NCBI RefSeq assembly: GCF_014205845.1
Contig: NZ_JACHCR010000001.1
Coordinates: 248,001 to 312,000, forward strand
Direction of reading: 5' to 3'
Source: Mucilaginibacter cryoferens
GTDB taxonomy: Bacteria; Bacteroidota; Bacteroidia; Sphingobacteriales; Sphingobacteriaceae
Length of the DNA: 64,000 nt
Shown here: piece after piece, positions 20,560 through 41,385 of the stretch
Position numbering within the stretch: position 1 is the stretch's first letter
Layout: every line of letters begins with the position of its first letter
Notes under the pieces: generated by a model
What the model was told of the DNA's origin: nothing
The model's database searches: none
Seen by the model: the letters and a program-made list of their open reading frames with translations, nothing else
Position numbers and translations under genes: made by a program

Positions 20560-21456
20560 CTATGCCGAACGGGTAGCCTTCTCAATATTATCCCACATTG
20601 CATCCGGTATCATTTCGAGCGCACTAAACTGACCGGCTCCCTGCAGCCATTCGCCGCCATCGATGGTAATTACCTCTCCGTTTATATAGCCCGAAAAATC
20701 CGACACCAGAAAAGCGGCCAGGTTGGCCAATTCCTGGTGTTCACCTACCCGTTTAAGGGGTACCCTGTTTTTAAAATCGAATTTTTGAGCCATGTCTCCT
20801 GGCAACAGTCTTTCCCATGCGCCCTTAGTGGGGAACGGGCCGGGCGCAATGGCATTGGTACGTATGCCATGCCTGCCCCACTCAACCGCCAGAGACCTGG
20901 TCATGGCCAACACACCGCCTTTTGCACAAGACGACGGCACAACGTAGGCCGAACCTGTAAAGGCATAGGTTGTAACAATATTCAATATGTTACCGGGTAT
21001 TTTTTCGTTGATCCAATATTTGCCCAAAGCCAATGAACAATTGGCCGAGCCCTTTAAAACAATATCAATTATAGCCGAGAACGCGTTTGCCGACAAGCGC
21101 TCGGTAGGCGAAATAAAATTACCTGCCGCATTGTTCAACAATACATCCACCCGGCCAAAAGCTTCAATGGCTTGTTGCAGCATGTTTTCAACTTCGTCAT
21201 ATTTTCGTACATCGCAAGCAATTGGTAATACCTTAACCTGGGTTTCCGATTCCATTTCGGCAGCCGTTTGTTGCAACACATCCAGCTTGCGGCTGGTGAT
21301 TACCAGGTTAGCGCCTAATTGCAAAAAGTAAGTCCCCATTGCTTTACCCAAACCGGTTCCGCCGCCGGTTACAATAATGGTTTTGCCTTTCAAAGCATTT
21401 TCCTTTAACATTCCACCGGCGTTTGCAGAATCATTTGAAGTTGTTGGATCTGTCAT
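20560..21456 (-). CDS. 2,4-dienoyl-CoA reductase-like SDR
   Basis: A 298-residue SDR with an intact T-G-G-G-T-G-L-G cofactor motif near residue 33 and N-N-A-A-G. In place of Y-x-x-x-K it has P-S-S-C-A-K, and downstream P-G-P-F-P-T-K-G-A-W. This is the pattern of mitochondrial DECR1, which uses a Ser/Lys arrangement, rather than a degenerate site. It would reduce 2,4-dienoyl-CoA with NADPH, letting polyunsaturated fatty acids enter beta-oxidation. It is the last gene of the beta-oxidation block, 6 bp after the enoyl-CoA hydratase stop. The ATG at 21456 is preferred to a TTG two codons earlier. Confidence 0.85.
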   Translation of the reverse strand: MTDPTTSNDSANAGGMLKENALKGKTIIVTGGGTGLGKAMGTYFLQLGANLVITSRKLDVLQQTAAEMESETQVKVLPIACDVRKYDEVENMLQQAIEAFGRVDVLLNNAAGNFISPTERLSANAFSAIIDIVLKGSANCSLALGKYWINEKIPGNILNIVTTYAFTGSAYVVPSSCAKGGVLAMTRSLAVEWGRHGIRTNAIAPGPFPTKGAWERLLPGDMAQKFDFKNRVPLKRVGEHQELANLAAFLVSDFSGYINGEVITIDGGEWLQGAGQFSALEMIPDAMWDNIEKATRSA

Positions 21457-21462
21457 CGTCAA

Positions 21463-22239
21463 TTAATTAGCAGCGGTATTTTTTGATTTTAAATTTTGTA
21501 TCATCATTTGCAAACCTTGCCGGGTTGCCGGTGCCCACCATTGCTCCAGCATCTTATTTAAAGTATCGGTTTGATCGGCTTTTAATTTGCCTATCAACTC
21601 CTTACGCAAATTTAATTTACTCTCACTCCAGGTAACAGGGTTTAGTTTCATATAAGCCTTTACCTTTTCTACGGCTGCATTCATCAGGTTCTCGGGCCCG
21701 CTAATTTCATCAATCAACCCTGCTTCCAGGGCTTCGTTCACCTTAAGCAATTTGCCCTCCATTAAATACTGATAAGCTTTACGCTGACCAAGCCAAAACG
21801 AATACAAATTAAAAACAATATCGGGAACAATAATACCTACCGGAATTTCATTTAACCCGATAATGAATGCCCCTGCTGCCATTACACGGTAATCGCAGCA
21901 AATAGCCAATATGCAACCACCGGCAGGGCTGTGGCCACTTATGGCGGCTACCAACGGCTTTCTGAAAGCTGTTAACGTATTTTGCAGGGCTAAAAAATCG
22001 ATCCAAAATTCGCGGCTTTGCTCTTCATTATAATCATAGGCCTCAATCAGATCTATCCCCGACGAGAAAAAACCCTCCTTACCGGTTAAAATCACCCCAC
22101 ACACACTATCATCACTCTCCAGCATTTTTATGCAACCGGCCAGTTCTTTAACCATTTGATGATTGATAGCATTTGAACGCCCCCTATCGAGTGAAATTAC
22201 CACCAGGTTGCCCTGTATCGTTGTTTGAAATGTATTCAT
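21463..22239 (-). CDS. enoyl-CoA hydratase/isomerase family protein
   Basis: A 258-residue crotonase-fold protein. Visible hallmarks are the first oxyanion-hole segment (F-F-S-S-G-I-D-L near residue 58) and the second (A-A-I-S-G-H-S-P-A-G-G-C near 100). The usual acidic catalytic Glu region reads I-G-L-N-E-I-P-V-G, so one Glu is retained. It could hydrate or isomerise enoyl-CoA, for example the delta3-delta2 shift needed for unsaturated acids. It starts 8 bp downstream of the acyl-CoA ligase stop and is followed immediately by the dienoyl-CoA reductase gene, which supports a role in unsaturated fatty-acid breakdown. Confidence 0.86.
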   Translation of the reverse strand: MNTFQTTIQGNLVVISLDRGRSNAINHQMVKELAGCIKMLESDDSVCGVILTGKEGFFSSGIDLIEAYDYNEEQSREFWIDFLALQNTLTAFRKPLVAAISGHSPAGGCILAICCDYRVMAAGAFIIGLNEIPVGIIVPDIVFNLYSFWLGQRKAYQYLMEGKLLKVNEALEAGLIDEISGPENLMNAAVEKVKAYMKLNPVTWSESKLNLRKELIGKLKADQTDTLNKMLEQWWAPATRQGLQMMIQNLKSKNTAAN

Positions 22240-22247
22240 CAGGTTAA

Positions 22248-24062
22248 TTAATTTGCAAAGGTTGGATTCTCGCTTACTTCGCTGGGATACATTTTATCTA
22301 TTTCGGCCTTGTATTTTTCGGTGATCACTTTCCGTTTCATTTTCCCGGTTGGTGTAAGTTCGCCGCTGTCTATAGACCATTCATCCGGAAGCAAGGTTAT
22401 TTTCTTCACCTGTTCAACATGGTTAAATTCGGGATTATAGGTATTAATAATTGATTGATAAAGTTCAATCACCCTGGCATCTTTAATTAATTCCTTGTTA
22501 GATAAAAAAACGATCTCGTTTTGTTTGCACCAGGGTTTTAAATGGGTGTAAGAAGGTACAATGAGCGCTGCAACAAACTTCCTTTCAGATCCCACAACCA
22601 TCATCTGCTCAATAAAATAATTTTCCTTCATCTTGTTTTCGATGGGTAGCGGAGCTACATATTTACCGCCCGAAGTTTTAAATATCTCCTTTTTACGATC
22701 TGTTATTTTCAGGAACGAGTCCTGATCCAGTTCGCCTATATCCCCGGTGTGGAACCACCCGTCTTCCAATACCTCAGCCGTAAGCTCGGGGTTTTTATAA
22801 TACCCCAACATAACATTAGGACCTTTGCAAAGGATTTCGCCATCGGCAGCAATTTTAACCTCCACACCACTCAACAACGGACCAACTGTACCAAATTTCC
22901 TTTTGCTTTTTTCATAGCAATTAACAGCTATTACCGGCGAAGTTTCGGTAAGCCCGTAACCTTCCATGATAACGATATTAGCTGCGGTAAAAATTCTTTC
23001 CAGTTTAATAGGGCAGGCCGAACTGCCAACTACTATTGCTTTTATATTTCCGCCAATAGCATTACGCCATTTGCTGTAAACCAATTTATCGGCAATGGCC
23101 AGCTTTATTTTATACCACAGACTGGTATCATTAATTTCATACGCTTCGGCCACTTTTACGGCCCAAAAAAAGACCTTCCTTTTTATACCGGCTAGTTTCT
23201 GGCCCTCTACCATAATTTTTTCAAACACTTTTTCGAGCAAACGAGGCACAGCAGTAAAAAGAGACGGTTTTACCTCTTTCATATTTGCACCTATGGTGTC
23301 CATATTCTCGGCATAGTAAATAGAAAAACCGTAGAAGAGATAAACGTAGGTACACATCTTTTCAAAAATGTGGTTCAGGGGCAAAAAGCTCAAAACGCAT
23401 TTTTCTTTCAGTGGTATCTGACTAAGCACATCGCCGGATGCTGTGGCATTGCTCAATATATTCTTATGAGTGAGCATTACCCCTTTGGGCCGGCCGGTGG
23501 TACCCGATGTATAAATGATAGTTGCAACATCGTCTTCGGTGATCCTATCGCTTATTTTGTTTAATTGTTGCCTGTAATCTTCCTTTAATGGCTTAAGTAA
23601 TACGCTCCAATGGGTGCATCCGCTTATATGGTCGAAAGTAAAAATGGCTTGCAGCGATGGTATATTTACCTGCACCTCTTTTACTTTATCGCATAAGTCC
23701 CGGCTGCTTACAAATACAAATTTAACTTCAGCCTCATTTAATATCTGCTCAATCTCCTTCGTGCCGGTATTGGGGTATAATGGAACTAATATAGCGCCTG
23801 TTTGCTGCACAGCCAGATCGGTTATCAGCCATTCGGGCCTGCCGTTGCTTATCAGCCCTATTTTATCGCGCCCCGTGGTGGTACCATCACCGCCCGAAAT
23901 TCCCCTATCCAGCAGTGCCGCAGATAACTGGTAAATCATAGTATGTACTTCCTGGGTACTGTATGATTTCCAGGAACCGTTCTCTTTTGCATTCAAAAAA
24001 TTGGCCCTGGGCTCTTTAGCCTGGATATCCATGCAATCAAACAATCTTGTCGCTTTTTCCAT
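22248..24062 (-). CDS. long-chain fatty acid-CoA ligase (AMP-forming)
   Basis: A 604-residue AMP-binding enzyme of the long-chain acyl-CoA synthetase class. The P-loop reads T-S-G-T-T-G-R-P-K-G-V at 185-195, followed by E-G-Y-G-L-T-E-T-S-P-V and W-F-H-T-G-D-I-G in the adenylation core, and a C-terminal lid ending in T-P-T-G-K-M-K-R-K with the conserved Lys. It activates fatty acids to acyl-CoA with ATP, the entry step of beta-oxidation. No signal peptide or membrane anchor is present. It lies 32 bp after the thiolase stop in the same operon. Confidence 0.93.
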   Translation of the reverse strand: MEKATRLFDCMDIQAKEPRANFLNAKENGSWKSYSTQEVHTMIYQLSAALLDRGISGGDGTTTGRDKIGLISNGRPEWLITDLAVQQTGAILVPLYPNTGTKEIEQILNEAEVKFVFVSSRDLCDKVKEVQVNIPSLQAIFTFDHISGCTHWSVLLKPLKEDYRQQLNKISDRITEDDVATIIYTSGTTGRPKGVMLTHKNILSNATASGDVLSQIPLKEKCVLSFLPLNHIFEKMCTYVYLFYGFSIYYAENMDTIGANMKEVKPSLFTAVPRLLEKVFEKIMVEGQKLAGIKRKVFFWAVKVAEAYEINDTSLWYKIKLAIADKLVYSKWRNAIGGNIKAIVVGSSACPIKLERIFTAANIVIMEGYGLTETSPVIAVNCYEKSKRKFGTVGPLLSGVEVKIAADGEILCKGPNVMLGYYKNPELTAEVLEDGWFHTGDIGELDQDSFLKITDRKKEIFKTSGGKYVAPLPIENKMKENYFIEQMMVVGSERKFVAALIVPSYTHLKPWCKQNEIVFLSNKELIKDARVIELYQSIINTYNPEFNHVEQVKKITLLPDEWSIDSGELTPTGKMKRKVITEKYKAEIDKMYPSEVSENPTFAN

Positions 24063-24094: not shown

Positions 24095-25270
24095 CTATAA
24101 CAATTCAAATACACCGGCTGCACCCTGCCCGGTGCCTACGCACATAGTAACCATACCATACTTTTTATCCCGCCGCTTCAACTCGTTAAAAAGTTGAACG
24201 GAAAGCTTGGCCCCGGTACAGCCAAGCGGGTGGCCAAGCGATATTGCGCCTCCATTTACATTTACTATTTCGGGGTTAAGCTCCAACCCTTTTATTACGG
24301 CCAATGATTGCGAAGCAAAGGCCTCGTTCAATTCTATCAGATCAATATCCTGTTGTTTCATCCCGGCCATTTTTAACACTTTTGGGATAGCTACAAGCGG
24401 GCCTATACCCATAATGCGCGGCGGCACACCCGCAACGGCATAACTAACCAGCCGGGCAATGGGTTTAAGGTTATTCTCTTTTAAAAAGCGTTCGCTAACT
24501 ACCATTACAAAGGCTGCCCCATCGCTGGTTTGCGACGAGTTGCCGGCAGTTACCACCCCTTTTGCATTAAACACAGGCCTAAGTTTGGCCAATGCATCAA
24601 TTGACGTATCGCTGCGCGGACCTTCATCCGTATCTATCTTAAACTCTCTTTTCTTTTTTTTGCCGCTCTCATCAATATATGTTTCTACAATATTTACCGG
24701 AACTATTTCATTTGTAAACTTACCTCCCTTAATAGCGCTGATGGCTTTTTGGTGAGAGTTATAAGCAAACAGATCCTGCTCTTCGCGACTGATATTATAT
24801 TCTTTTGCAACGGCTTCGGCTGTGAGGCCCATACCCCAGTAATAATCGGGATGCGCAAGGGCAACATCGGCATTAGGCACAATGCGCCAGCCCCCCATCG
24901 GTATCAGGCTCATACTTTCTACACCGCCGGCAATAATGCAATCGGCAATGCCACTATGTATTTTTGCCGAGGCTATGGCAATAGTTTCCAGGCCCGATGA
25001 GCAATAGCGATTTACCGTCATACCGGGTACCTTATCGGTATCAAGCGCCATTAACGAGATCAGCCGGGCTACATTTAAGCCCTGCTCGGCCTCGGGAGTA
25101 GCATTGCCCACAATCACATCATCTATCTGCTCTTTATCTACGTTAGGCACTGATGCCAGCAGGTGCTTGATAACATCTGCTGCAAGCGTATCCGGGCGGG
25201 TAAATCTGAATCCGCCACGGGTAGCTTTTCCAACAGCGCTGCGGCTAGCTGCCACTATATATGCGTTCAT
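24095..25270 (-). CDS. fadA: acetyl-CoA C-acyltransferase (thiolase)
   Basis: A 391-residue degradative thiolase. The nucleophile is Cys90 (R-Y-C-S-S-G-L-E-T-I), the catalytic His347 is in G-H-P-L-G-C-T-G-A, and the second Cys377 is in M-C-V-G-T-G-Q-G. It cleaves 3-ketoacyl-CoA to acetyl-CoA and a shortened acyl-CoA. The stop of the upstream bifunctional FadB/FadJ-type gene is 27 bp away, so the two subunits of the trifunctional activity are cotranscribed, as in other Bacteroidota. Confidence 0.94.
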   Translation of the reverse strand: MNAYIVAASRSAVGKATRGGFRFTRPDTLAADVIKHLLASVPNVDKEQIDDVIVGNATPEAEQGLNVARLISLMALDTDKVPGMTVNRYCSSGLETIAIASAKIHSGIADCIIAGGVESMSLIPMGGWRIVPNADVALAHPDYYWGMGLTAEAVAKEYNISREEQDLFAYNSHQKAISAIKGGKFTNEIVPVNIVETYIDESGKKKKREFKIDTDEGPRSDTSIDALAKLRPVFNAKGVVTAGNSSQTSDGAAFVMVVSERFLKENNLKPIARLVSYAVAGVPPRIMGIGPLVAIPKVLKMAGMKQQDIDLIELNEAFASQSLAVIKGLELNPEIVNVNGGAISLGHPLGCTGAKLSVQLFNELKRRDKKYGMVTMCVGTGQGAAGVFELL

Positions 25271-25297: not shown

Positions 25298-27679
25298 TTA
25301 GTTTCTTAATACTTTTCCGCCTGTTAATATAGATTGTATCCGCTCAAGCGTTTTCTTTTCGGTGCAAAGTGCAACAAAGGCTTCACGCTCCAGACCCAAT
25401 AAATATTCTTCGCTTACGATGGAAGGCTGAGAAAGGTCGCCCCCCGAAAGCACGTAGGCCAGTTTTTGCGATATTTTTACATCATGCTCGCTAATGTAAT
25501 TGCCGCTGTACATGGTATTGGCACCTACATAACCCAAACCAAGGGCCTGCTTGCCCAATACCCTGATATCGCTGCGCGGGATGGGCTGTACATACCCTTC
25601 ATTTGCCATTTGCAGGCATTGCTGTTTCGCTTCGGCAAGTAACCTGTTACGGGATACCACCACCAGATCTCTACCCTTTTTAAGGTAGCCAAACTCAAAA
25701 GCCTCATAAGCCGAGGTTGACACTTTTGCCTGGCCAATGGTTAAAAAGCGGTCGCGGAAATTATTTAGTTCTATATCACCGTCCTGTAGTTCGTCTGAAA
25801 GCCGCAGCGCAAATTCTTTTGTTCCGCCTCCGCCTGGTATTAAACCAACGCCAAACTCAACCAGGCCCATATACAGTTCGGCATGAGCCACCACTTTGTC
25901 GGCATGCAAACACATTTCGCAACCACCGCCCAAAGCCATCTGATGAGGCGCTATTACAACCGGAATAGATGAATAGCGTATCCGCATCATGGTATTCTGG
26001 AAAGCCTTTATTACCATATTCAGTTCATCAAACTCCTGTTCAACAGCCATCATAAATATCATGCCCACATTAGCGCCGGCGCTGAAATTGGCCCCCTCGT
26101 TTGATATAACCAACCCTTTATAGCTTGCTTCGGCAAGGGTAATGGCTTTATTAATCCCTTCAATTACTTCGCCACCTATTGTATTCATTTTGGTGTGAAA
26201 CTCCAGGTTAAGTATACCATCGCCAATATCGGCAATGGTGGTACCGCTGTTTTTCCATACGGTATTAGTTTCGCGGATATTATCCAGCAAAATAAACCCT
26301 TCTGTACCCGGAATTATCTTGTAAACTTTCGACGGAATATCATAGTACAAACGTTTACCATGCTCTATTTTATAGAAGCTTTTAGCACCTGCCGCCAGCA
26401 TATCATATACCCATTGGGCGGGTCTATTCTCCGCAGCTTCCATAGCTTTAACCGTATCTTCAACGCCCAGCGCATCCCATTTTTCGAAAGGACCCATTTC
26501 CCAGCCAAAGCCGGCATTGGTTGCCGCGTCTATTTTATAAAGCTCGTCGGATATTTCGGGAATGCGGTTACTGGCATAAGCAAACAACTGGTAAAATGTA
26601 GCCCGGTAAAAATCACCGGCTTTATCCTTCGCCGCAAACAGAATTTTAAGCCTGTCTTTCAGGTTATCAACCGCTTTTGTTGTTTCAAGAGAGGCGAATT
26701 TTACTTTTCGAGAAGGCTTATATTCCAGCGTTTTCAAATCAAGCGCATAAAACTGGTTTACCCCATCAACTTTTTCTTTTTTATAAAAACCCTGACCGGT
26801 TTTACTCCCCAGCCAGTTATTTTTTACCATTCCATCTACAAATGAAGGGATCTTGAATATTTCTCTCGCTTCATCATCCGGCGCGTTTTGGTAAAGACCA
26901 TTGGCAACATGCACCATGGTATCTAAGCCCACCACATCATTGGTACGAAACGTGGCCGATTTGGGGTGCCCAATTACCGGCCCGGTGAGCTTATCTACCT
27001 CATCAACTGTCATCCCCGTTTTTTCTACATAATGCAACACACTCATAATGCTGAAAACGCCAATACGGTTACCTATAAATGCAGGCGTATCTTTGGCAAG
27101 TACGGTAGTTTTGCCCAGGTATTTCTCGCCATACTCCATTAAAAAACCCACTACACCGGGCAGGGTATCTTTTGCCGGGATAATCTCCAATAACTTTAAA
27201 TACCGTGGAGGGTTGAAGAAATGGCTGCCACAAAAGTGTTTTTTAAAATCATCGCTGCGGCCTTCGGCCATTAAATGTATGGGAATGCCGGAGGTGTTTG
27301 AAGTGATCAGCGTTCCGGGTTTCCGGTGCTTTTCTACTGTTTCAAATACTTTCTGTTTAATGTCCAGCCGTTCAACCACTACTTCTATCACCCAATCGCA
27401 ATCGGCAATTTTGGGCATATCATCTTCAAAATTCCCGGTGGTGATACGCCTTGCAAATGTTTTTTGGTAAATGGGCGATGGGTTTGATTTTAAAGCAAAA
27501 TCCAGCGCATCATTAACAATTTTGTTTCTGGCTTTTTTATCGGCCGGGGGGGCATCCTTAGGCACAATATCAAGCAACAGTACCTGCACGCCGGTGTTTG
27601 CAAAATGGCAGGCTATACGACTGCCCATTACGCCCGACCCCAATACTGCAACCTTTTTTATAATTCGTTTAGCATCCAT
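25298..27679 (-). CDS. 3-hydroxyacyl-CoA dehydrogenase / enoyl-CoA hydratase, bifunctional
   Basis: A 793-residue multifunctional protein in the Bacteroidota order. The NAD-binding dehydrogenase domain comes first (G-S-G-V-M-G at 14-19), then the dehydrogenase C-terminal domains including S-N-T-S-G-I near 128. The crotonase-type hydratase is at the C-terminal half, with M-A-L-G-G-G-C-E and L-I-P-G-G-G-G-T-K. E. coli FadB has the opposite order. It performs hydration and oxidation of the beta-oxidation spiral. It starts 31 bp after the DUF2147 gene's stop and is followed by the thiolase gene. Confidence 0.94.
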   Translation of the reverse strand: MDAKRIIKKVAVLGSGVMGSRIACHFANTGVQVLLLDIVPKDAPPADKKARNKIVNDALDFALKSNPSPIYQKTFARRITTGNFEDDMPKIADCDWVIEVVVERLDIKQKVFETVEKHRKPGTLITSNTSGIPIHLMAEGRSDDFKKHFCGSHFFNPPRYLKLLEIIPAKDTLPGVVGFLMEYGEKYLGKTTVLAKDTPAFIGNRIGVFSIMSVLHYVEKTGMTVDEVDKLTGPVIGHPKSATFRTNDVVGLDTMVHVANGLYQNAPDDEAREIFKIPSFVDGMVKNNWLGSKTGQGFYKKEKVDGVNQFYALDLKTLEYKPSRKVKFASLETTKAVDNLKDRLKILFAAKDKAGDFYRATFYQLFAYASNRIPEISDELYKIDAATNAGFGWEMGPFEKWDALGVEDTVKAMEAAENRPAQWVYDMLAAGAKSFYKIEHGKRLYYDIPSKVYKIIPGTEGFILLDNIRETNTVWKNSGTTIADIGDGILNLEFHTKMNTIGGEVIEGINKAITLAEASYKGLVISNEGANFSAGANVGMIFMMAVEQEFDELNMVIKAFQNTMMRIRYSSIPVVIAPHQMALGGGCEMCLHADKVVAHAELYMGLVEFGVGLIPGGGGTKEFALRLSDELQDGDIELNNFRDRFLTIGQAKVSTSAYEAFEFGYLKKGRDLVVVSRNRLLAEAKQQCLQMANEGYVQPIPRSDIRVLGKQALGLGYVGANTMYSGNYISEHDVKISQKLAYVLSGGDLSQPSIVSEEYLLGLEREAFVALCTEKKTLERIQSILTGGKVLRN

Positions 27680-27710: not shown

Positions 27711-28163
27711 TTATTCTGCCCGCGACCAGGTTGTAGTACGCCCGAAAAGCGAAATACCGACATATCCCCGGATGTCTAAGGTTTTACCTTTGTAAGTTAT
27801 TTTGCAGGAGTACGTTTTGCCGTTGTTAGGATCATAAATTGTTCCGTCGGTATATTTGTTATCCCCATCTTTCACAAAATCGGCCAGTACGGGTAAACCC
27901 AACCTGGGCCTTGTGCGTAATTTTTCATCGGCGTTTAGTTCGTCAACTTTAGGTTTCCCGTTTTTTAAGGGTTCCTTAAGCCAAACCACCTTACCATAAA
28001 ACTTACCGTTGCTCTCTTTTGTGATTTGGATTTTGGCACTTTTTACATCGTTGTACCACAGGCCCTCAACTTTATCAGTTTGCGCTTTTACACTGATACT
28101 TACAGATACAGCTGTTAGCATTACTAATACAAAACGGATGAAATGTTTTTTTGATACAGGCAT
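27711..28163 (-). CDS. DUF2147 exported protein
   Basis: A protein of about 150 residues with a signal peptide (M-P-V-S-K-K, then a hydrophobic core, ending V-K-A-Q near residue 28). The mature part matches DUF2147: V-E-G-L-W-Y-N at the start, G-K-V-V-W-L, D-G-T-I-Y-D-P-N-N-G-K-T-Y, and L-D-I-R-G-Y-V-G near the end. The family is a small periplasmic beta-barrel of unknown role that is common near lipid or acyl-CoA genes. The ATG at 28163 places the signal peptide at the N-terminus; a longer frame to 28229 has a 22-residue extension and is not preferred. It lies between the acyl-CoA-binding protein gene and fadB-type gene. Confidence 0.88.
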   Translation of the reverse strand: MPVSKKHFIRFVLVMLTAVSVSISVKAQTDKVEGLWYNDVKSAKIQITKESNGKFYGKVVWLKEPLKNGKPKVDELNADEKLRTRPRLGLPVLADFVKDGDNKYTDGTIYDPNNGKTYSCKITYKGKTLDIRGYVGISLFGRTTTWSRAE

Positions 28164-28416
28164 TGCTTCAGGTATTATTTCTATAACTAAAACCATCTCT
28201 TTTTTGAGCCATATCCATGCTTTTTGCAATTACCAAACGGCAATACCCGGCATCAGAAGCTATCTTTTAAAAAAGAGACAGGTAGAATTATAAAATGGTT
28301 TAATAATTTAGTCCCGATAATTAGCGGGATGGTTTATAACAACAAATATCCTTTACGGCAGCTATTTACAAAGGTCTAAATGACGGAAACATTTGTCAAT
28401 ACTTCGGATATTAAAG

Positions 28417-28686
28417 TTAATCCGTTTTATTTGATAATTGCGCTACCAGGCCAATATATTGCTGCATGGCATTATCGGCGGTAGTGCCCTTTTGTTTTAA
28501 CCAGGCATCGTATTTTGCTTTAGCCACAAAATCAAACATACCCGGAGGGTTTTCTGTATTTATATCGCCTTCGGTTGCTTGTTTGTATAAACTATACAAG
28601 CGCAATAATGTTTCATTATCTGGCTTTGACGGTAATTGTTTACTCTCTTTAACTGCTTCTTCAAAAGCATCTTTCAGATCAGTCAT
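28417..28686 (-). CDS. acyl-CoA-binding protein (ACBP)
   Basis: An 89-residue protein that matches the ACBP family in length and motif: an N-terminal helix with F-E-E-A-V, the L-Y-S-L-Y-K-Q-A-T-E-G-D segment, P-P-G-M-F-D-F and A-K-Y-D-A-W. These Tyr and Lys residues contact acyl-CoA in known ACBPs. It would buffer and deliver long-chain acyl-CoA in the cytoplasm. ACBP is typical of eukaryotes and found in a minority of bacteria; its place inside the beta-oxidation block fits its role. A repeat-filled gap of 418 bp separates it from the thioesterase gene upstream. Confidence 0.93.
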   Translation of the reverse strand: MTDLKDAFEEAVKESKQLPSKPDNETLLRLYSLYKQATEGDINTENPPGMFDFVAKAKYDAWLKQKGTTADNAMQQYIGLVAQLSNKTD

Positions 28687-29104: not shown

Positions 29105-29554
29105 CTAATCGCTGACATGATTGCCCTCTTCAACATAATCGCTGCTCCGGGGCGCATTCATAAACATCTGGCTTAATGCTGCCGGTAATATGGCAAGCTT
29201 GCGCTTCTCCATATCTATCCATGAGCCCTCGGCATTTATTATGGCGGCTTTAACGCCATCGCCCCGGTACAGTTCGTGCCTTATTGCCCAGCGGGAGCCG
29301 TCTGGCCGCGCTTTGATAAGCTCGCAGGTTACGCTGATGCGCTCATTGATCCCTATCTCACGCAGATAGATCAATTCTTCCCTGAATAACACTGGCCCTA
29401 TTTTATATTCGTAAAGTGTGGGCAGCTTTAAACCGAGGCTTTCGAGCATAATTATCCGCGCCTGAGCTGCAAAATCGGCATAAGCAGAATGTCGCATGTG
29501 CTGGTTCGAGTCTATCTGCGACCATAGCACCTGTCCTTCATAAAAAAATTCCAT
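29105..29554 (-). CDS. acyl-CoA thioesterase, hotdog fold (4HBT)
   Basis: A 149-residue single hotdog-domain protein. The active-site helix start reads Q-I-D-S-N-Q-H-M-R-H-S-A-Y (Asp15 and His19), the 4-hydroxybenzoyl-CoA thioesterase pattern. It probably hydrolyses acyl-CoA to control the free CoA pool during fatty-acid breakdown. No signal peptide is present. It begins 13 bp after the etfA stop, so it belongs with the ETF genes. Confidence 0.87.
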   Translation of the reverse strand: MEFFYEGQVLWSQIDSNQHMRHSAYADFAAQARIIMLESLGLKLPTLYEYKIGPVLFREELIYLREIGINERISVTCELIKARPDGSRWAIRHELYRGDGVKAAIINAEGSWIDMEKRKLAILPAALSQMFMNAPRSSDYVEEGNHVSD

Positions 29555-29567
29555 ACCCCTGATTATT

Positions 29568-30545
29568 TTATTTATGATGTTCTTTAAACTTTTTAATGGC
29601 TGCTGTTAGTCTTGGTAAAATCTCCATGGCATCGCCTACAACGCCATAATTAGCCGCTTTAAAAAACGGGGCTTCCGGATCTTTGTTGATCACTACAATA
29701 GTTTTTGAACCGTTAACGCCGGCAAGGTGCTGTATGGCCCCCGATATACCCACCGCGATATACAAATTAGGGCGCACCGTGCCACCTGTTTGGCCCACAT
29801 GCTCGTGATGCGGCCTCCAATGAGCATCGGCCACCGGGCGCGAACAGGCTGTGGCAGCCCCCAGCTCTTTTGCCAGATCCTCCAGTATGCCCCAATTTTC
29901 GGGGCCCTTCATGCCTCGGCCACCAGAAACTACCAGGTCGGCATCAGCAAGCGGTACCGCGCCGGTTACTTTATTTACTGCTTTAACTTTTACGCCAAAA
30001 TCCTTATCGCCAAAGCTTACCTCCTGTTTCTCTACAACAGCCTTACCCTCAACTTTACCTACCGGAAAGGTGTTGGGCATCAGCATAATTACCTTTACAT
30101 CGCTTAAAATATTAACATAAGCGAATGCTTTACCCGAAAAAACCGCCTTTTTAATAACAAACCCTTTTTCCATATCGGGATACGAAAGCGCACCGGCCAC
30201 CAGGCCAGCTTTTAACGTTACGGCCACCCGCGGTGCAACCATTCTGCCCTTAATATCATGAAGTGTTACAATTACTTTACTGCTCTCCTTTTGCGCTGCA
30301 GCTACCAATGCGCTGGTATATGCCCTTGCATGTAATTCATCCAAACGGCTATCGGCAACATGTAACACTTTTTGAGCACCGTATTCGCCAAGGCTCTCCA
30401 TTTCGGCATCGGCAACATTGCCTAAAACAACCGCGGTAACCGTGCTACCCATTTGTTTGGCTATTTGCGCGGCATATTGCACAGCCTCAAAGTTTTTCTT
30501 TTTTATAATTCCTCCGGTATGTTCTACCAATACAATTACAGACAT
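29568..30545 (-). CDS. etfA: electron transfer flavoprotein, alpha subunit
   Basis: A 325-residue ETF alpha subunit. The C-terminal FAD-binding domain is clear: [12 protein letters not shown] near 210, then [10 protein letters not shown] near 265, and [10 protein letters not shown] near 288. It pairs with EtfB (the next gene upstream, 58-bp gap) to carry electrons from acyl-CoA dehydrogenase to the quinone pool via ETF-quinone oxidoreductase, which is not in this window. Confidence 0.95.
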
Positions 30546-30603: not shown

Positions 30604-31347
30604 TTAAATAACCTTAGTCTCTGCGTGCAACAACTCTACCAGTTCGTCCATATTATCGGGGCTTACCAGTTTTATACCTGCCTTGGCCGGTGGCAATTCA
30701 TAAGTTAATATTTTTGTTACCGCCGTTATTTTTGAAGGCACAACAACTTTTAACGGGCGTGTACGTGCGGCCATTATACCACGCATATTGGGTATGCGGG
30801 CTTCGGCAACACCTTTTTGGCAGGAAATAACCACCGGTAAATTACACACATCTGTTTCTTCGCCGCCTTCTATTTCTCGGGTTACAACAGCTGTATTAGC
30901 TTCTACCTGGATACCTGTTGCAAAACCAATGTAGTCAACGCCCAACAATTCGGCCAGCATGGCACCTGTAGTACCGTTATTGTAATCGATAGATTCTTTG
31001 CCGCATAAGATAAGATCATAACCCACCTCGGCAGCATATTCAGCTATATAATTGGCAGTTTCGTAAGGATCATCGTTATCTGCATCAATGCGGATGGCTT
31101 CATCGCCGCCCAATGCCAGAGCTTTCCTTATCACAGGCCCAACATCAAATCTATCTACAGTTACAAGGTGAACCTGGGTAGCAATCCCGCTTTCTTTTAA
31201 TTCAATGGCCCTGATCAATGCATACCATTCATCATAGGGGTTAATTACATAGGTAACACCATCGCTATTAACGGAGGTGTTATTGTTTTTTAATATAATT
31301 TTAGTACTGGTATCAGGCACCTGACTTATGCACACTAGTATTTTCAT
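30604..31347 (-). CDS. etfB: electron transfer flavoprotein, beta subunit
   Basis: A 247-residue ETF beta subunit with the family's N-terminal K-I-L-V-C-I-S-Q-V-P-D-T and the AMP-site segment C-G-K-E-S-I-D-Y-N-N-G-T-T-G-A near 130, followed by a recognition-loop region. It forms the heterodimer with EtfA, encoded 58 bp downstream. The 325 bp in front of it contain a palindromic element, so it may be transcribed separately from acyl-CoA dehydrogenase or by read-through. Confidence 0.95.
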   Translation of the reverse strand: MKILVCISQVPDTSTKIILKNNNTSVNSDGVTYVINPYDEWYALIRAIELKESGIATQVHLVTVDRFDVGPVIRKALALGGDEAIRIDADNDDPYETANYIAEYAAEVGYDLILCGKESIDYNNGTTGAMLAELLGVDYIGFATGIQVEANTAVVTREIEGGEETDVCNLPVVISCQKGVAEARIPNMRGIMAARTRPLKVVVPSKITAVTKILTYELPPAKAGIKLVSPDNMDELVELLHAETKVI

Positions 31348-33469: not shown

Positions 33470-33680
33470 AAATAAGTATTTAATGGTTGTATTTTATCCT
33501 TCTTAAAATTTATTTCTCCGCATCAATCCTGATACGCAAAATCTATTTTACTTAGCTGTACTTTATATATTAATAGTTGCTGATTTGTATCAGTTTCCTG
33601 GTAACAAAGTGCCCCTGCTTTTATCGCAGCGTTTTAGTTTTATAATCAGGAGTAAAATTAACGGCGTTGTTAAACTAAAG

Positions 33681-33719
33681 AAAGGGCTGCAATGCGGAGA
33701 TATTAGTCAAAAAGTCGGA
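33681..33719 (-). promoter_or_regulatory. 39-bp shared element upstream of the beta-oxidation operon
   Basis: Identical at 37 of 39 positions to the reverse complement of 34918-34956, with 29 contiguous identical bases at 33691-33719. In the minus (transcribed) direction it lies about 215 bp before the acyl-CoA dehydrogenase ATG, in the same orientation as the other copy has to fadL. Probably an operator for a fatty-acid regulator, the AraC-type protein between the two copies being the first candidate. Confidence 0.7.
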
Positions 33720-33730
33720 AAGAGGGATTG

Positions 33731-33758
33731 GGTTGATTGAGTTGGGTTGATTGGGTTG
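33731..33758. repeat. tandem 14-nt repeat
   Basis: Two consecutive 14-nt units, GGTTGATTGAGTTG and GGTTGATTGGGTTG, differ by one base. A degenerate complementary tract (C-A-A-C-C rich) lies at about 33901-33935, running into the end of the AraC-type gene, so the segment could fold back on itself. Confidence 0.5.
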
Positions 33759-33931
33759 AAATAAGTTTTTATAATTAACTACTCACTCCGTCAAAATAGT
33801 TCTTCAGGTTAGGATATGGAACTGTTTCGATTTTGTTGTGGTTTGACTTCGGTAAAATAGTCGAAATTAATTCATATACAAAAATCAACCAGTCCAACTT
33901 AACCAACCACTTAACCTAATCAACCACCCAC

Positions 33932-34819
33932 TCAATGAGCAGATATCGCCCTATAATCAGACGGCGACACGCCGGCATGTTTCTTAAAATATTTGCCAAA
34001 CGAAGATTGATCTGGGAAATGTATGTCTTCGGCTACCCGGGCAATGCTTATTTCATGGTTTCTTAGTAATACCTTGGCCTCAAGTATTACCGCATCGTCT
34101 ATCCATTCTCCGGCGGTTCTCCCGGTTACTTCCTTTATGGTTTCTGTTAAATGTTTTGGAGATACATAAAGTGCATCGGCATAATATTGTACATTACGAT
34201 GTTCTTTATAATGATAAAAAACAAGGGCCTGAAAAAGCACATTCAGCTCCTGTTTCCGGGTTTGTTTTCCTTTTATTATTATATGTTGTTTTTCGTAAAT
34301 AGCTTGTATTTCATAAAGCAGTGTCATTAAAATACTTCTGGATATTGCAATATGGTACGGATGCCCTTCACGTTCCAGCTTTTGCTGTATCAATAAATAA
34401 ATTTCCAGTATCATTCTTGCATCTGCATCATCAGGGTAAATTACCGGGATAGATGCATTCTTAAAATAACTGAATGATTCCAAAAAATGGCTATTGACAC
34501 TATTTTCTGTTAAAAAGGCTTTGCTAAAAACAACAAACCGGCATAAAAAATCGGCGCTACTGTCATATATCCTTAAAACATGAAAGGGAGTTGCCAAAAG
34601 CATGGCATTGGGCCGGGCATCATATACTTGTAGGTTCACCTCTACTTTAGCTGTTCCGCGCGTACAGATACCTACAATATAACCATCCGATCGATAGGGA
34701 AATTCGCTTAAACTCAATAATTTTCGCTCGTCAACAACAAAAAAATCGGCACCGGCCAGCTTGTCAGCGTAAAGATCTGCAAATTTTGATAGGCTTAATT
34801 GTCCAACCTTATTATTCAT
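33932..34819 (-). CDS. AraC-family transcriptional regulator
   Basis: A 295-residue regulator with an N-terminal sensing domain (about 1-170) and a C-terminal AraC helix-turn-helix pair at about 195-293. The second helix reads F-P-D-Q-S-S-F-G-K-Y-F-K-K-H-A-G-V-S-P-S-D-Y-R, the usual AraC signature. It lies between the beta-oxidation operon and fadL, bracketed by two inverted copies of a 39-bp element, so I infer that it controls fatty-acid uptake and breakdown. Whether it responds to acyl-CoA or free fatty acid cannot be told from sequence. Confidence 0.88.
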   Translation of the reverse strand: MNNKVGQLSLSKFADLYADKLAGADFFVVDERKLLSLSEFPYRSDGYIVGICTRGTAKVEVNLQVYDARPNAMLLATPFHVLRIYDSSADFLCRFVVFSKAFLTENSVNSHFLESFSYFKNASIPVIYPDDADARMILEIYLLIQQKLEREGHPYHIAISRSILMTLLYEIQAIYEKQHIIIKGKQTRKQELNVLFQALVFYHYKEHRNVQYYADALYVSPKHLTETIKEVTGRTAGEWIDDAVILEAKVLLRNHEISIARVAEDIHFPDQSSFGKYFKKHAGVSPSDYRAISAH

Positions 34820-34917
34820 ATAATTTCGATATTGTAGTTAAACTATTGTATTTATTCCCCCCTGAAAAGGTAGATTTTAAAGCGATTTTCCCTGCATAAT
34901 ATTAAAAATAAGCTTTA

Positions 34918-34956
34918 TCCGACTTTTTGACTAATATCTCCGCATTATAGCCCTTT
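34918..34956 (+). promoter_or_regulatory. 39-bp shared element upstream of fadL
   Basis: The second copy of the 39-bp element, in forward orientation to fadL, ending about 90 bp before its ATG. It differs at two positions from the copy at 33681-33719. It contains TTGACT and, in this copy only, TATAG; the latter is GCAG in the other copy, so it is not a shared -10 element. Confidence 0.7.
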
Positions 34957-35046
34957 TTTTCTTTTCAATCCAAACTAATTTTATGTTCGATAGCTGCAAG
35001 TTGCAATCCACATGCAATTGCCTATTTATTAACCAATTACATTCTT

Positions 35047-36270
35047 ATGAAAAAAATTCTACTTTTGGTGCTCTCCATAGCGCCGCTGTTAGCTTTTTCC
35101 CAGGGTTTCCAGGTTAACCTGGAGGGACAAAAGCAGATAGGTATGGGCCATACCGGCACGGGTACCCTGCAAGATGGTGCTTCTGTATTTTTTAATCCCG
35201 GCGCAGTGGCCATGCTCCCCGAAAATTATGTACAGGGAGGTATAAGCCCGTTATTTTTCAAATCTGATTTCAATCCTTCCGGTACATCGATACAGGATCG
35301 TACGGCAAATAAGGTGGCAACTCCGTTCGAGTTTTATGCTGTATGGGGACCTAAATCTTCTTTCTGGAAACTGGGATTGGGTGTTTATACCCCTTTTGGT
35401 GGTTTAACCGACTGGGGCAACACCTGGCAGGGTAAATATGTGCTGGAAAGCCTCGATCTGAAAGCCATTTACATTCAGCCCACACTGAGTATAAAACTGG
35501 CCGATTGGATGAGCATTGGCGGTGGATTTGTTTATAACCGCGGCAGCGTTGATCTGACACGGGCCATCCCATTGGCAAACAGCTCCGGCCAGCCGGGCCA
35601 GGCCGAGTTGAAAGGCAGCGGCAAAGGCTACGGATGGAATGCGGGCGTCTACTTCAAAACAGAATCGGGTGTAACTATAGGAATCACACACCGGTCGCAG
35701 GTAAATACCACCATTCCTTCGGGCAATGCTATTTTTAGTGTACCTGCATCATTGCAAAGCAGTTTCCCTCAGCCCAACACCTTTAGCGCAACCATACCAT
35801 TACCCGCCGTTAATTCCATTGGCTTTGGGTTTTATCCCAGCAGTAAATGGATACTGGCTCTTGATGTAAATATTGTTAACTGGGATTCTTATAAAACATT
35901 ATCGTTTGATTATAAATCCAATACAGCAGCTTTACAGGATACTCACTCTCCCAGAAATTACCAGCAAGCATATAGTTTACGTGGAGGTGCCCAGTATAAG
36001 GCTACCAATAAACTTGCCCTGCGTTTTGGCGGTGGCTATGCCAGCACCGCTGTTGCGGATGGTTATGTAACTCCCGAAGCTCCGGATGCCAATCGTGTAT
36101 ATGGCACGCTGGGTTTAGGCTATACGATGGCCAAACACCTCGATATAGATATCTCCTTTGAGTATGAGCACCTGATGCAGCGTACCCAAACCAATATCGA
36201 ATCGCAGTTATCGGGAACATTTAAAACCGACGTATATATACCAGGTATCTCATTGGCTTATCATTGGTAA
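35047..36270 (+). CDS. FadL/OmpP1-family outer-membrane fatty-acid transporter
   Basis: A 407-residue outer-membrane protein with a signal peptide (A-F-S-Q near residue 19). It has the FadL N-terminal pattern G-M-G-H-T-G-T-G and V-F-F-N-P-G-A-V near 55-60, the hatch and barrel-entry region that follows, and strand-rich sequence to the end (S-L-A-Y-H-W). It would admit long-chain fatty acids or other hydrophobic compounds across the outer membrane. It shares the 39-bp upstream element with the beta-oxidation operon and is followed after 20 bp by a GDSL lipoprotein gene, so uptake, ester hydrolysis and breakdown appear to be one regulon. Confidence 0.92.
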   Translation: MKKILLLVLSIAPLLAFSQGFQVNLEGQKQIGMGHTGTGTLQDGASVFFNPGAVAMLPENYVQGGISPLFFKSDFNPSGTSIQDRTANKVATPFEFYAVWGPKSSFWKLGLGVYTPFGGLTDWGNTWQGKYVLESLDLKAIYIQPTLSIKLADWMSIGGGFVYNRGSVDLTRAIPLANSSGQPGQAELKGSGKGYGWNAGVYFKTESGVTIGITHRSQVNTTIPSGNAIFSVPASLQSSFPQPNTFSATIPLPAVNSIGFGFYPSSKWILALDVNIVNWDSYKTLSFDYKSNTAALQDTHSPRNYQQAYSLRGGAQYKATNKLALRFGGGYASTAVADGYVTPEAPDANRVYGTLGLGYTMAKHLDIDISFEYEHLMQRTQTNIESQLSGTFKTDVYIPGISLAYHW

Positions 36271-36290: not shown

Positions 36291-37610
36291 ATGAAAACAT
36301 TTAAACAACATATTTATATTATTGCGGGGTTACTGTTATTAGGTGCCTGCAAGCCCGAGATACACACGCCAAAACCATCTGCCGGCTCTGTTGATTTTTC
36401 AAGATACATCTCGTTAGGTAATTCGCTTACCGCCGGATATGCCGATGGCGGCTTATACCTTGCAGGTCAGCAGGTATCTTACCCCAGCATTATAGGTAAG
36501 CAAATGCAATCGGTTGGTGGGGGCGCGTTTACGCAGCCATTGTTTAGTACCGCCCAGGCAAATGGATCTGGCTATTTATCATTAACCGGGTTTAATGCCG
36601 ATGGCACACCTATTACAACTGCGGTAACTACCAACCTTGCCATACGCGGGATACTTCCTGTTCCAGGTTTTGGAAACGTTACCTTATATACTAAGTATAC
36701 CGGTGATATTAATAACTATGGTGTACCCGGCATTAAGCTGATACATATCACCTATGCGCCATACGGCAACCTTAACGGGTATTATGAGCGCCTGTTGCCC
36801 GGTAATTCTCCAACAAACTCCACCACCTATCTTGATTTTGTTATGGCCAAACCATTCACCTTTTTCTCTAACTGGCTTGGAAACAATGATGCTTTAAGTT
36901 ATGCAACATCTGGCGGAGCCGGCGATGTGCTGACGGATAAAGGCACCTTTGCTTATTTGTATAACGTATTGATAACTACCTTAACAGCCAAAGGGCAAAA
37001 AGGCGTAGTTGCAACAGTACCCGACGTAACTTCGATCCCCTATTTTAATACTATCACCGTTTCGGCCATACTGGCCGGTGTACAAAAAGCAAATCCGGCA
37101 GCCAAAGCGCTGTATATTAATGCACTGGTGTCTGGCACTACCTACGCGCCGCGCCAGGCAACAACTAAAGACCTTATCGTGCTTACCTTTCCAACAAGCA
37201 TGATAGGGCAGCCGGTTTCAACGCCGTATGGCACATTGCCTTATGGCTTAACACCTTATACACCCATAGACAACCAATACGTACTTGACGAAAACGAAAC
37301 TGCCCTTACCGAAGATTATGTTACTTCTTACAACACAACAATAAAATCTGTAGCGGCATCAAAAGGACTGGCAGTATTTGACGCTTACACTTTTCTTCAA
37401 AATGTAAAGCAGAATGGCCTGGTGGTTGATGGGGTAAGTGTTAATTCTAACTATATCAGCGGTGGCCTTTTTTCGCTGGATGGAGTACACCTCACGCCAC
37501 GTGGTTATGCCATAGTGGCCAACCAATTTATCAAAGCCATTAATGATAAATACAACTCATCAATACCACAGGTAAACATATCAGATTATAATGGGGTTAA
37601 GTTTCCTTAA
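36291..37610 (+). CDS. SGNH/GDSL-type lipoprotein hydrolase
   Basis: A 439-residue lipoprotein with the acceptor Cys at residue 20 (L-G-A-C-K-P). The SGNH nucleophile is Ser45 in S-L-G-N-S-L-T-A-G-Y, and the C-terminal Asp-His pair is in L-D-G-V-H-L-T-P-R-G-Y-A. It probably hydrolyses lipid esters at the cell surface or in the periplasm, feeding fatty acids to FadL, with which it is cotranscribed (20-bp gap). The natural substrate, lipid or other acyl ester, cannot be decided. Confidence 0.87.
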   Translation: MKTFKQHIYIIAGLLLLGACKPEIHTPKPSAGSVDFSRYISLGNSLTAGYADGGLYLAGQQVSYPSIIGKQMQSVGGGAFTQPLFSTAQANGSGYLSLTGFNADGTPITTAVTTNLAIRGILPVPGFGNVTLYTKYTGDINNYGVPGIKLIHITYAPYGNLNGYYERLLPGNSPTNSTTYLDFVMAKPFTFFSNWLGNNDALSYATSGGAGDVLTDKGTFAYLYNVLITTLTAKGQKGVVATVPDVTSIPYFNTITVSAILAGVQKANPAAKALYINALVSGTTYAPRQATTKDLIVLTFPTSMIGQPVSTPYGTLPYGLTPYTPIDNQYVLDENETALTEDYVTSYNTTIKSVAASKGLAVFDAYTFLQNVKQNGLVVDGVSVNSNYISGGLFSLDGVHLTPRGYAIVANQFIKAINDKYNSSIPQVNISDYNGVKFP

Positions 37611-40178: not shown

Positions 40179-40751
40179 ATGCTGAAGCAAAAATTATCGG
40201 AACATATAAGAGGAATTATTACCCTTACCGACGAGCAACTGGAACTGGCATTGAGTTTTTTCAAGTATGCCCAATATCAAAAGAATGAGTTTTTGGTGAA
40301 TGAAGGGCAGATAAGCCAGCACATGAATTTTATTGTTAAGGGATGTCTCCGCATTTTTTTTATCCGCGAGGATGGTCAGGAAGCTACCCGCCACCTGGCA
40401 TTTGAGCAGCAATTTGCAACGGGATTAGCCAGCTTTATTACACAAACGCCATCGGGCGAGTACATACAGGCCATGGAAGAAACCATGCTTTTACGTATTA
40501 CCCGTAAAGATTTTTATTACCTTCTCAACATCATTCCGGCATGGGAAAAGTTTTACCGGAATTATCTGGAAAACGCGTACATCAATAATATACAAATATT
40601 TAAAAGAGAAATTACCAAAGATGCTGAACTGCGCTACAAGGAGCTATTGGACCGTAACCCGGAAGTTGTTCAACGGTTATCTAACAAGGTGGTGGCCTCT
40701 TACCTTAACATGTCTCCCGAAACCCTTAGCCGGATCAAGTCAAGACGCTGA
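40179..40751 (+). CDS. Crp/Fnr-family regulator 1
   Basis: A 190-residue protein with a cyclic-nucleotide-binding-like beta-barrel (about 20-120) and a short C-terminal DNA-binding helix ending at residue 190. The recognition helix S-P-E-T-L-S-R-I-K-S-R has Glu181, Ser184 and Arg185, matching the FNR E-x-x-S-R that reads TTGAT. No cysteine cluster for an iron-sulfur centre is present. It follows the MFS gene after 2 bp. It may bind the palindrome upstream of the operon. The signal it senses is unknown. Confidence 0.85.
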   Translation: MLKQKLSEHIRGIITLTDEQLELALSFFKYAQYQKNEFLVNEGQISQHMNFIVKGCLRIFFIREDGQEATRHLAFEQQFATGLASFITQTPSGEYIQAMEETMLLRITRKDFYYLLNIIPAWEKFYRNYLENAYINNIQIFKREITKDAELRYKELLDRNPEVVQRLSNKVVASYLNMSPETLSRIKSRR

Positions 40752-40809: not shown

Positions 40810-41385
40810 ATGCATAATTACCTGCTAAACTTAATATCTCAAAAAGTTTCATTAACCGAAGCTGATATTGATCTATGTAAAACCAGTTTTGAGCCAGTAC
40901 TGTTTCCTAAAAACCGGATCATTGAAGAAGCAGGTACAACTCCACAGTATTTATACTTTGTTATCAAGGGGTTTATGCGCTTATTTCATTACAACGAAAA
41001 CGGCGACGAAGTAACTACCCATATCAACTGCCCACCGGGATTTTTAACTTCTTATTCTCATTTCATTAATCAAACCCAAACAAATGAAAATGTAGAGTGT
41101 ATAACCGAGTGTGAGCTGCTTAGGATCACTAAAAGTAATTTGGACCTCCTGACCAGCCAAAGTACCGCGTTTAAAGATTTTAGCATTCAGGTATTTCAAC
41201 AGTCCATCACCTACAATGAAACCCGTTCAAAAGAATTAGCTACTTTAACAGCAGAGCAACGCTATAAAAAGCTGATCGAAAACTATCCGGGTATTATCCA
41301 TCATGTACCGGTTCAATATATCGCTTCGTTTCTGGGTATGAAGCCCGAGAGCCTGAGCCGGATACGCAAACGGATAAATTTCTAA
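40810..41385 (+). CDS. Crp/Fnr-family regulator 2
   Basis: A 191-residue protein of the same plan as its neighbour at 40179: an N-terminal cNMP-binding-like barrel and a C-terminal helix-turn-helix, with the recognition helix K-P-E-S-L-S-R-I-R-K-R (Glu180, Ser183, Arg184). The two proteins are clearly paralogous but diverged. It lacks an iron-sulfur cysteine cluster. Gap to the first regulator is 58 bp. Two tandem Crp/Fnr regulators suggest heterodimer formation or sequential control. Confidence 0.85.
   Translation: MHNYLLNLISQKVSLTEADIDLCKTSFEPVLFPKNRIIEEAGTTPQYLYFVIKGFMRLFHYNENGDEVTTHINCPPGFLTSYSHFINQTQTNENVECITECELLRITKSNLDLLTSQSTAFKDFSIQVFQQSITYNETRSKELATLTAEQRYKKLIENYPGIIHHVPVQYIASFLGMKPESLSRIRKRINF

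What the first reader, a model, noticed from the sequence alone, without database searches (positions are those of the whole stretch)
33681..34956. A 39-bp box brackets an AraC gene and faces both fatty-acid uptake and breakdown operons
The element at 33681-33719 and the reverse complement of 34918-34956 agree at 37 of 39 bases, 29 of them contiguous. Each copy is in the same orientation to its own target, the acyl-CoA dehydrogenase/beta-oxidation operon on one side and fadL plus a GDSL lipase on the other. The gene between them encodes an AraC regulator. This is strong evidence for a shared operator and a fatty-acid regulon run by an AraC protein rather than by FadR or a TetR regulator.
Basis: partly seen in the sequence, partly recalled or inferred. 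Interest (0 to 1): 0.72.

Follow-up and report, generated by a model that had tools for sequence, protein, structure and literature searches.

The report
AraC activator runs fat-burning genes
In Mucilaginibacter bacteria a short repeated DNA box sits in front of each operon of a fatty-acid uptake and breakdown cluster and was found nowhere else in the genome, and its layout suggests that it is the docking site through which a neighbouring AraC-type protein switches the pathway on.

Summary
In detail: 37 of 39 bases agree, 29 contiguous, each copy in the same orientation to its operon. A profile finds only these three sites in the 6.95-Mb genome. Of 149 genomes of the genus (Mucilaginibacter, by named relatives), 63 carry the AraC orthologue; all 63 carry the box, 53 exactly three times, none more (E <= 0.001). 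In the six near-complete genomes with fewer, operons are merged or fadL is not beside araC, and boxes match operon heads; Chitinophagaceae-type genomes have one operon and one box. The box is two direct half-sites, 21 bp apart, as AraC-family sites are. Its end lies 19-20 nt from a Bacteroidota -7 element (101 of 102 copies within 18-21 nt): class II activator geometry. In 28 of 44 loci with distant AraC homologues the best match lies beside araC, 27 of 28 with the same spacing. Conclusion: an AraC activator with a compact beta-oxidation regulon, new in target, built on a known AraC plan. Binding, activation and inducer (perhaps a fatty acid or acyl-CoA) are inferred; I found no experiment.

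The parts
33681..33719 (+). Box 1 (acd operon copy): two direct half-sites, 21-bp period; the target operon is on the minus strand to its left
33653..33660 (-). Predicted -7 element TAATTTTA of the acd promoter, 20 nt from the box end
   Evidence: 26 of 26 acd boxes have a -7-like element at 20 nt
34918..34956 (-). Box 2 (fadL copy, in the araC-fadL divergent intergenic region)
34976..34983 (+). Predicted -7 element TAATTTTA of the fadL promoter, 19 nt from the box end
   Evidence: 33 of 33 fadL boxes have a -7-like element at 19 nt
28370..28408 (+).
28343..28350 (-). Predicted -7 element GATATTTG of the DUF2147-fadB promoter, 19 nt from the box end
33932..34819 (-). AraC-family regulator, 295 aa: N-terminal cupin-type domain, C-terminal double helix-turn-helix
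31673..33469 (-). acyl-CoA dehydrogenase (FadE-type), first gene of the box 1 operon
30604..31347 (-). electron-transfer flavoprotein subunit (called etfB here)
29568..30545 (-). electron-transfer flavoprotein alpha subunit (etfA)
29105..29554 (-). acyl-CoA thioesterase-like protein (4HBT_2)
28417..28686 (-). acyl-CoA-binding protein (ACBP), just upstream of box 3
27711..28163 (-). DUF2147 protein, first gene after box 3 (start codon chosen by eye, like those of relatives)
25298..27679 (-). 3-hydroxyacyl-CoA dehydrogenase / enoyl-CoA hydratase fusion (FadB-type)
24095..25270 (-). acetyl-CoA C-acyltransferase (thiolase)
22248..24062 (-). acyl-CoA ligase (FadD-type)
21463..22239 (-). enoyl-CoA hydratase/isomerase
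20560..21462 (-). SDR, best matched by 2,4-dienoyl-CoA reductase (below that model's cut-off)
35047..36270 (+). FadL/TodX-type outer-membrane transporter
36291..37610 (+). GDSL lipase/acylhydrolase, second gene of the fadL operon

Best explanation
The 39-bp box is the operator of the AraC-family protein encoded between its two near-identical copies. A dimer binds the two direct half-sites (consensus G-K-C-N3-A-N3-CGGA, 21 bp apart, so on one face of the helix). Its promoter-proximal half-site takes the place of a weak or absent -33 element, about 20 nt upstream of a Bacteroidota -7 element, and recruits RNA polymerase: class II activation, as at araBAD. Three promoters are served: fadL-GDSL lipase (uptake), acd-etf-thioesterase-ACBP (first oxidation step and electron transfer) and DUF2147-fadB-thiolase-fadD-hydratase-reductase (rest of beta-oxidation). 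The N-terminal cupin domain probably senses a fatty acid, an acyl-CoA or a pathway product, so that uptake and breakdown are induced together. Shown by sequence: box, symmetry, promoter spacing, co-occurrence, genome-wide exclusivity. Inferred: binding, activation, operon structure, inducer.
For: Exclusivity: three profile hits in the own genome, E 1.7e-14 to 5.7e-11, the next 7.9. Co-occurrence in 149 genomes of the genus: AraC orthologue in 63, box in all 63, exactly three copies in 53, never more, at E <= 0.001. Of ten genomes with a fadB homologue but no AraC match, nine lack the box. Boxes follow operon heads: in the six genomes of at least 95% completeness with one or two boxes, acd (with or without thioesterase or etf) runs on into fadB with 83-327 bp before fadB (in G122 this is seen from the thioesterase gene on, acd being on another contig), and in four no fadL lies beside araC in the stretch fetched; genomes with one merged operon (L107, L108, L110, L114) have one box; two ORFs are inserted between araC and the acd box in G023, and the box faces etfB where acd has moved. 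21-bp direct repeat: 1.24 excess per column, 0.58 or less at the other offsets; 1 of 20,000 permutations. -7 element 18-21 nt from the box end in 101 of 102 copies, shuffles 11.4 on average, 22 at most. Box 96%, rest of intergenic region 46% over 32 relatives. Distant AraC homologues: in 28 of 44 loci the best match lies within 600 bp of araC, 3.5 expected; 27 of these 28 have the -7 element at 19-20 nt, shuffle mean 1.6. G049 and G078, with a box but no orthologue and no fadB at the cut-offs, have it beside a 32-33%-identical AraC gene. Model: cupin plus double HTH.
Against: No binding or expression data were found. Four further genomes with one or two boxes are 61-84% complete and were not examined. 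The box also has a weaker partial inverted symmetry (0.95 per column over 13 pairs). Box 1 and box 3 are about 200 bp from the start codon in the window, so a further promoter or a leader is possible there. The exact generic pattern TTGAC-N20-CCTTT-N20/21-ANNTTTG is not enriched outside the genus (13 hits, about 26 for its reversed control). Sixteen of 44 distant AraC loci have no best match beside araC. Related genomes are not independent, so the counts overstate the number of events. For the inducer there is only pathway context and fold.
Confidence: 0.87

Rival explanations
1. The AraC protein binds the boxes but acts as a repressor (or switches between both), and a fatty acid relieves it, like FadR.
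For: The box overlaps the -33 position, where a bound protein could also block polymerase. Fatty acids inhibit DNA binding by the AraC-type proteins ToxT and HilD (PMC9247172, passages seen).
Against: At fadL and acd no TTTG stands at the -33 position; the box end takes its place, and the spacing to the -7 element is nearly fixed across the three promoters and the distant homologues; this fits a promoter that depends on the activator. Direct repeats placed this way are the araBAD activator layout (recalled).
Confidence: 0.09
2. The boxes are read by another regulator encoded elsewhere, and AraC is only a neighbour.
For: No binding data; the own genome has 36 AraC-like matches.
Against: 63 of 63 co-occurrence, AraC-type 21-bp direct repeats, related boxes next to distant members of the AraC family in 28 of 44 loci, and the paralogue-plus-box pairs in G049 and G078, which lack this fadB.
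Confidence: 0.03
3. The box is a mobile or palindromic repeat element, or a conserved RNA leader, without a regulator.
For: Near-identical copies 1.2 kb apart in inverted orientation look like a repeat family at first sight.
Against: At most three copies per genome, in the genomes looked at only at fad promoters or, in G049 and G078, beside another AraC gene; the box lies upstream of the predicted -7 element, so outside the predicted transcript.
Confidence: 0.01

Closest known systems
E. coli AraC at araBAD (I1-I2 direct repeats; recalled) and AraC-family rhamnose regulators, Bacteroides among them (PMC3870299, passages seen)
   Same: AraC-family protein with cupin-type sensor domain and double HTH; direct-repeat site with 21-bp periodicity; promoter-proximal half-site at the upstream promoter element; local catabolic regulon.
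   Different: The target is fatty-acid uptake and beta-oxidation, not a sugar; three promoters in one cluster carry the same single box; the promoter is of Bacteroidota -7/-33 type. Half-site sequences were not compared.
E. coli FadR (GntR family) and TetR-type fad regulators (PsrA, Bacillus FadR; TetR types recalled)
   Same: Same job: fit fatty-acid uptake and breakdown genes to the fatty-acid supply (FadR: PMC9247172, passages seen).
   Different: FadR represses fad genes and is released by acyl-CoA; here an AraC-family protein at an activator-type position. No FadR_C domain in this genome.
ToxT and Rns, AraC-family proteins with bound fatty acids (ToxT: PMC9247172, passages seen; Rns with decanoic acid: title)
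   Same: AraC family, cupin-type N-terminal domain; both are at the top of the Foldseek list.

Membership tests
AraC/XylS transcription regulator family | C-terminal double helix-turn-helix of AraC type | tested here: met
   HTH_18 4e-20 and HTH_AraC 9e-11 over their cut-offs; the modelled C-terminal domain matches AraT, MarA and AraC DNA-binding domains
AraC/XylS transcription regulator family | N-terminal cupin-type sensor/dimerisation domain of the AraC/RhaR branch | tested here: met
AraC-type operator | Direct repeat of half-sites, two helical turns (21 bp) apart | tested here: met
   Best offset 21, 1 of 20,000 column permutations, not corrected for the 21 offsets tried; a weaker partial inverted symmetry also exists
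Class II AraC activator promoter | Proximal half-site at the -35/-33 position, at fixed distance from the -10/-7 element | tested here: met
   -7-like element 18-21 nt from the box end in 101 of 102 copies; transcription start sites not mapped
Class II AraC activator promoter | Regulator binds and activates transcription | not testable with these tools
   needs binding and expression experiments
FadR (GntR family) regulon | FadR_C domain protein in the genome | tested here: not met
   PF07840: no match in the own genome; of 14 control genomes the search rings in E. coli alone
TetR-type fad regulator (PsrA / Bacillus FadR) | TetR protein with palindromic operator at the fad genes | not tested
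   No TetR gene was sought genome-wide; the box is best described by direct repeats
Mobile intergenic repeat | Many copies at unrelated places | tested here: not met
   three copies, one locus, in the 6.95-Mb genome (150 of 3194 first-look candidates were scored)

The most novel reading that the evidence does not exclude
In this branch of the Bacteroidota an AraC activator that senses a fatty acid or acyl-CoA in its cupin domain took over control of beta-oxidation. It belongs to an AraC subfamily spread over several Bacteroidota families (other likely targets: HlyD-type efflux proteins, pirin, nitroreductase, a PLP aminotransferase) that shares one promoter plan: a 39-bp, 21-bp-period box fused to the -33 position, with a constant GGTC..AA part and a variable CGGA-like part that sets which member reads it.
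Probability: 0.4. Interest if true: 0.65.

Novelty: new member of a known kind. Interest (0 to 1): 0.53.

Why it matters
It predicts who controls fat breakdown in many members of a genus whose fad regulation my searches did not find in print, by a family of regulators better known for sugars. It gives a precise rule (box, 21-bp period, 19-20 nt to the -7 element) for finding targets of related AraC proteins in Bacteroidota. And it offers a natural series (one operon and one box, two and two, three and three) for studying how a regulon grows or shrinks with its operons.

Tried and rejected
Mobile repeat: rejected by the genome count. FadR (GntR): no domain match. Generic class-wide promoter pattern: 17 hits in 15 of 395 genomes; the four in the genus are fad boxes, the 13 elsewhere are fewer than the roughly 26 of the reversed control, so I do not claim a general promoter type. 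The half-site pattern with 2 mismatches gives about as many hits in relatives as its control; only the profile separates true sites. Profile hits with E of 0.05 and worse were not followed, nor were the ten genomes outside the genus with profile hits of E 3e-4 to 0.007. ToxT/Rns similarity as proof of a fatty-acid ligand: too weak, RhaR is closer. Ten paper searches ran: three returned nothing; no listing showed AraC control of beta-oxidation in Bacteroidota; the library is open-access only and I saw listings and, for five papers, passages.

Full report
Observation. Seen from the target, both read TCCGACTTTTTGACTAATATCTCCGCATT..AGCCCTTT; 211 bp separate box and start codon at the acyl-CoA dehydrogenase, 90 bp at fadL.

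A third copy. Written as two half-sites, the box is GNCNNNAANNCGGA-N7-GNCNNNAANNCGGA. In the own genome this pattern with up to two mismatches occurs at the two known places and once more, at window 28374-28408. There it faces the second beta-oxidation operon: DUF2147, a 3-hydroxyacyl-CoA dehydrogenase/hydratase fusion, thiolase, acyl-CoA ligase, enoyl-CoA hydratase and a dienoyl-CoA-reductase-like SDR. On its own a two-mismatch hit could be chance (reversed control: 7), but the site is kept in relatives, in the same place and orientation.

Only here. A sequence-only profile R1 of 24 boxes from nine genomes finds three sites in the own 6.95-Mb genome with E from 1.7e-14 to 5.7e-11; the next has E = 7.9 (150 of 3194 first-look candidates scored). 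In 149 genomes of the genus 67 have a box at E <= 0.001 and 63 have the AraC orthologue at E <= 1e-80. All 63 are among the 67; 53 of them have exactly three boxes, five two and five one, none more. Of the four others, G125 and G152 have the box beside fad genes (G152 with a fragment of araC, G125 at a contig start), and I read both as assembly breaks; G049 and G078 have one box each beside a different AraC gene, 32-33% identical over residues 1-290, followed by a pirin-like and a TolC-like gene by inspection (Pirin_C_2 domain for L227). Ten genomes have a fadB homologue at E <= 1e-200 without an AraC match; nine of them lack the box (the tenth is G125). Seven of the nine have a fadB of only 68-74% identity; in G012 (88%) the gene is cut off at a contig start and in G005 (87%) the contig ends inside DUF2147, before the place of the box. 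The co-occurrence is therefore with AraC, though the fadB controls are few and diverged.

Boxes match operon heads. The named relatives place the window in Mucilaginibacter; 40 orthologue loci (L076-L115, 68-92% identity, some partial) were scanned with the window (104 matches up to E = 1; the weight matrix keeps 103). Of these 41 sources 30 have three boxes, two have two and nine have one; the eleven include partial contigs. Boxes stand before fadL, before acd or etfB (in L096 before the thioesterase gene), and before DUF2147 or fadB. In G023 two ORFs lie between araC and the acd box, and the box stayed with acd. In L097, L101-L104 and L106 acd has moved behind the thiolase and the box faces etfB. 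In L107, L108, L110 and L114 (Flavipsychrobacter and Chitinophagaceae records) fadB, thiolase, acd, fadL-like and GDSL genes follow each other in one orientation where the contig reaches that far, and there is one box, before fadB. Ten of the 63 AraC genomes have fewer than three boxes. I fetched the six that are at least 95% complete: in G139, G164 and G130 acd leads straight into fadB (83-115 bp before fadB), no fadL lies beside araC in the stretch, and there is one box; in G122 the thioesterase gene leads into fadB within 116 bp on another contig, no fadL lies beside araC, and there is one box; in G149 and G093 acd leads into fadB (176 and 327 bp before it), fadL is present, and there are two boxes. 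So the number of boxes fits the number of operon heads in all six. The other four are 61-84% complete and were not examined.

Symmetry and promoter. Over 67 distinct sites the column profiles match best at an offset of 21 (1.24 excess per column; the best other offset 0.58), and 1 of 20,000 permutations of the second half reaches this (not corrected for 21 offsets). Inverted symmetry is weaker (0.95 over 13 pairs). AraC-family rhamnose regulators in Bacillales, Bacteroides and Enterococcus are described with direct repeats of 21-bp periodicity (PMC3870299, passages). Bacteroidota promoters have TAnnTTTG at -7 and TTTG near -33 (PMC7366714 and PMC2483708, passages). At 101 of 102 boxes with enough sequence an element with at least five of six matches to TAnnTTT(G/A) starts 18-21 nt after the box end (fadL 19 in 33 of 33; acd 20 in 26 of 26; the miss is L093 box 3); base shuffles give 11.4 on average and 22 at most in 200. 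One box (L098) was dropped because its contig ends. In the araC-fadL region of the 32 relatives with that arrangement the box is on average 96% identical to the window, the -7 element 96%, the spacer 73% and the rest 46%. The box therefore takes the -33 place, which is the class II activator layout of araBAD (recalled). These genomes are related, so the counts are not independent events.

The wider AraC subfamily. Forty-four loci with distant homologues (28-40% identity; L116-L155, L045-L048) were scanned with a weight matrix from the 24 boxes. In 28 of 44 the best match of the whole locus lies within 600 bp of the araC gene, 3.5 expected. Of these unfiltered 28, 27 have the -7 element at 19-20 nt, shuffles 1.6 on average and 6 at most in 1000; of the 16 loci with a best match elsewhere, 2 have it. 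The 28 fall into 17 groups of similar sites. By eye many share AGGKC..AA and TTGGTCAAAA and differ in the CGGA parts. First ORFs behind ten such boxes (of 31 listed) were scanned: HlyD-type membrane-fusion protein in four, PLP aminotransferase, TetR, nitroreductase, alpha/beta hydrolase, and pirin-type in two.

The protein. The model (mean pLDDT 85, 51 sequences) has a cupin-type domain and a double HTH. The regulatory domain of RhaR is the closest solved structure by Z (18.5, rmsd 2.4, 159 residues); BgaR and AraC regulatory domains follow at about 12-14, and the fatty-acid-binding ToxT and Rns reach 12-14 over the whole chain at rmsd over 7. A profile search gives weak matches to ToxT residues 28-94 (E 2e-4 to 6e-4, no single stretch passing) and to stand-alone cupins. 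That the inducer is a fatty acid or acyl-CoA is a guess from the pathway.

Verdict. It is a compact AraC regulon for fatty-acid uptake and beta-oxidation, most likely run by activation. The kind of system (AraC-family local activator with 21-bp direct repeats) is known; its use for beta-oxidation and its box-per-operon layout in this group did not turn up in the searches I made.

Noticed in passing
window 28417-28686 (-): An acyl-CoA-binding protein (ACBP, 89 aa) ends the acd-etf-thioesterase gene row directly before box 3; such proteins are mostly known from eukaryotes (recalled).
   Followed up: partly
window 33728-33758 and 33883-33927: Two short degenerate tandem repeats (GGGTTGATT-like and its reverse complement AATCAACC-like) lie between box 1 and the araC stop codon.
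   Followed up: no
L277, L278, L280 (G130, G139, G164): Genomes that keep this AraC, acd and fadB in one row without the etf genes and without fadL beside araC in the stretch fetched; where those genes went was not looked up.
   Followed up: partly
L127, L130, L145, L152, L154, upstream of araC: In these Pedobacter loci the related box lies upstream of araC and faces a PLP-dependent aminotransferase-family enzyme (domain scanned for L127) that resembles serine palmitoyltransferase by eye, perhaps another lipid gene.
   Followed up: partly
L227 and L228 (G049, G078): An AraC paralogue with a box much like the fad box but beside pirin-like and TolC-like genes: a natural specificity twin for testing box recognition.
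   Followed up: partly
window 42610-45171 (-): An 853-aa protein joins a GDSL esterase domain to a family 20 glycoside hydrolase.
   Followed up: no
window 40179-40751 and 40810-41385 (+): Two adjacent Crp-type proteins of 190 and 191 aa with only the cyclic-nucleotide-binding domain recognised.
   Followed up: no
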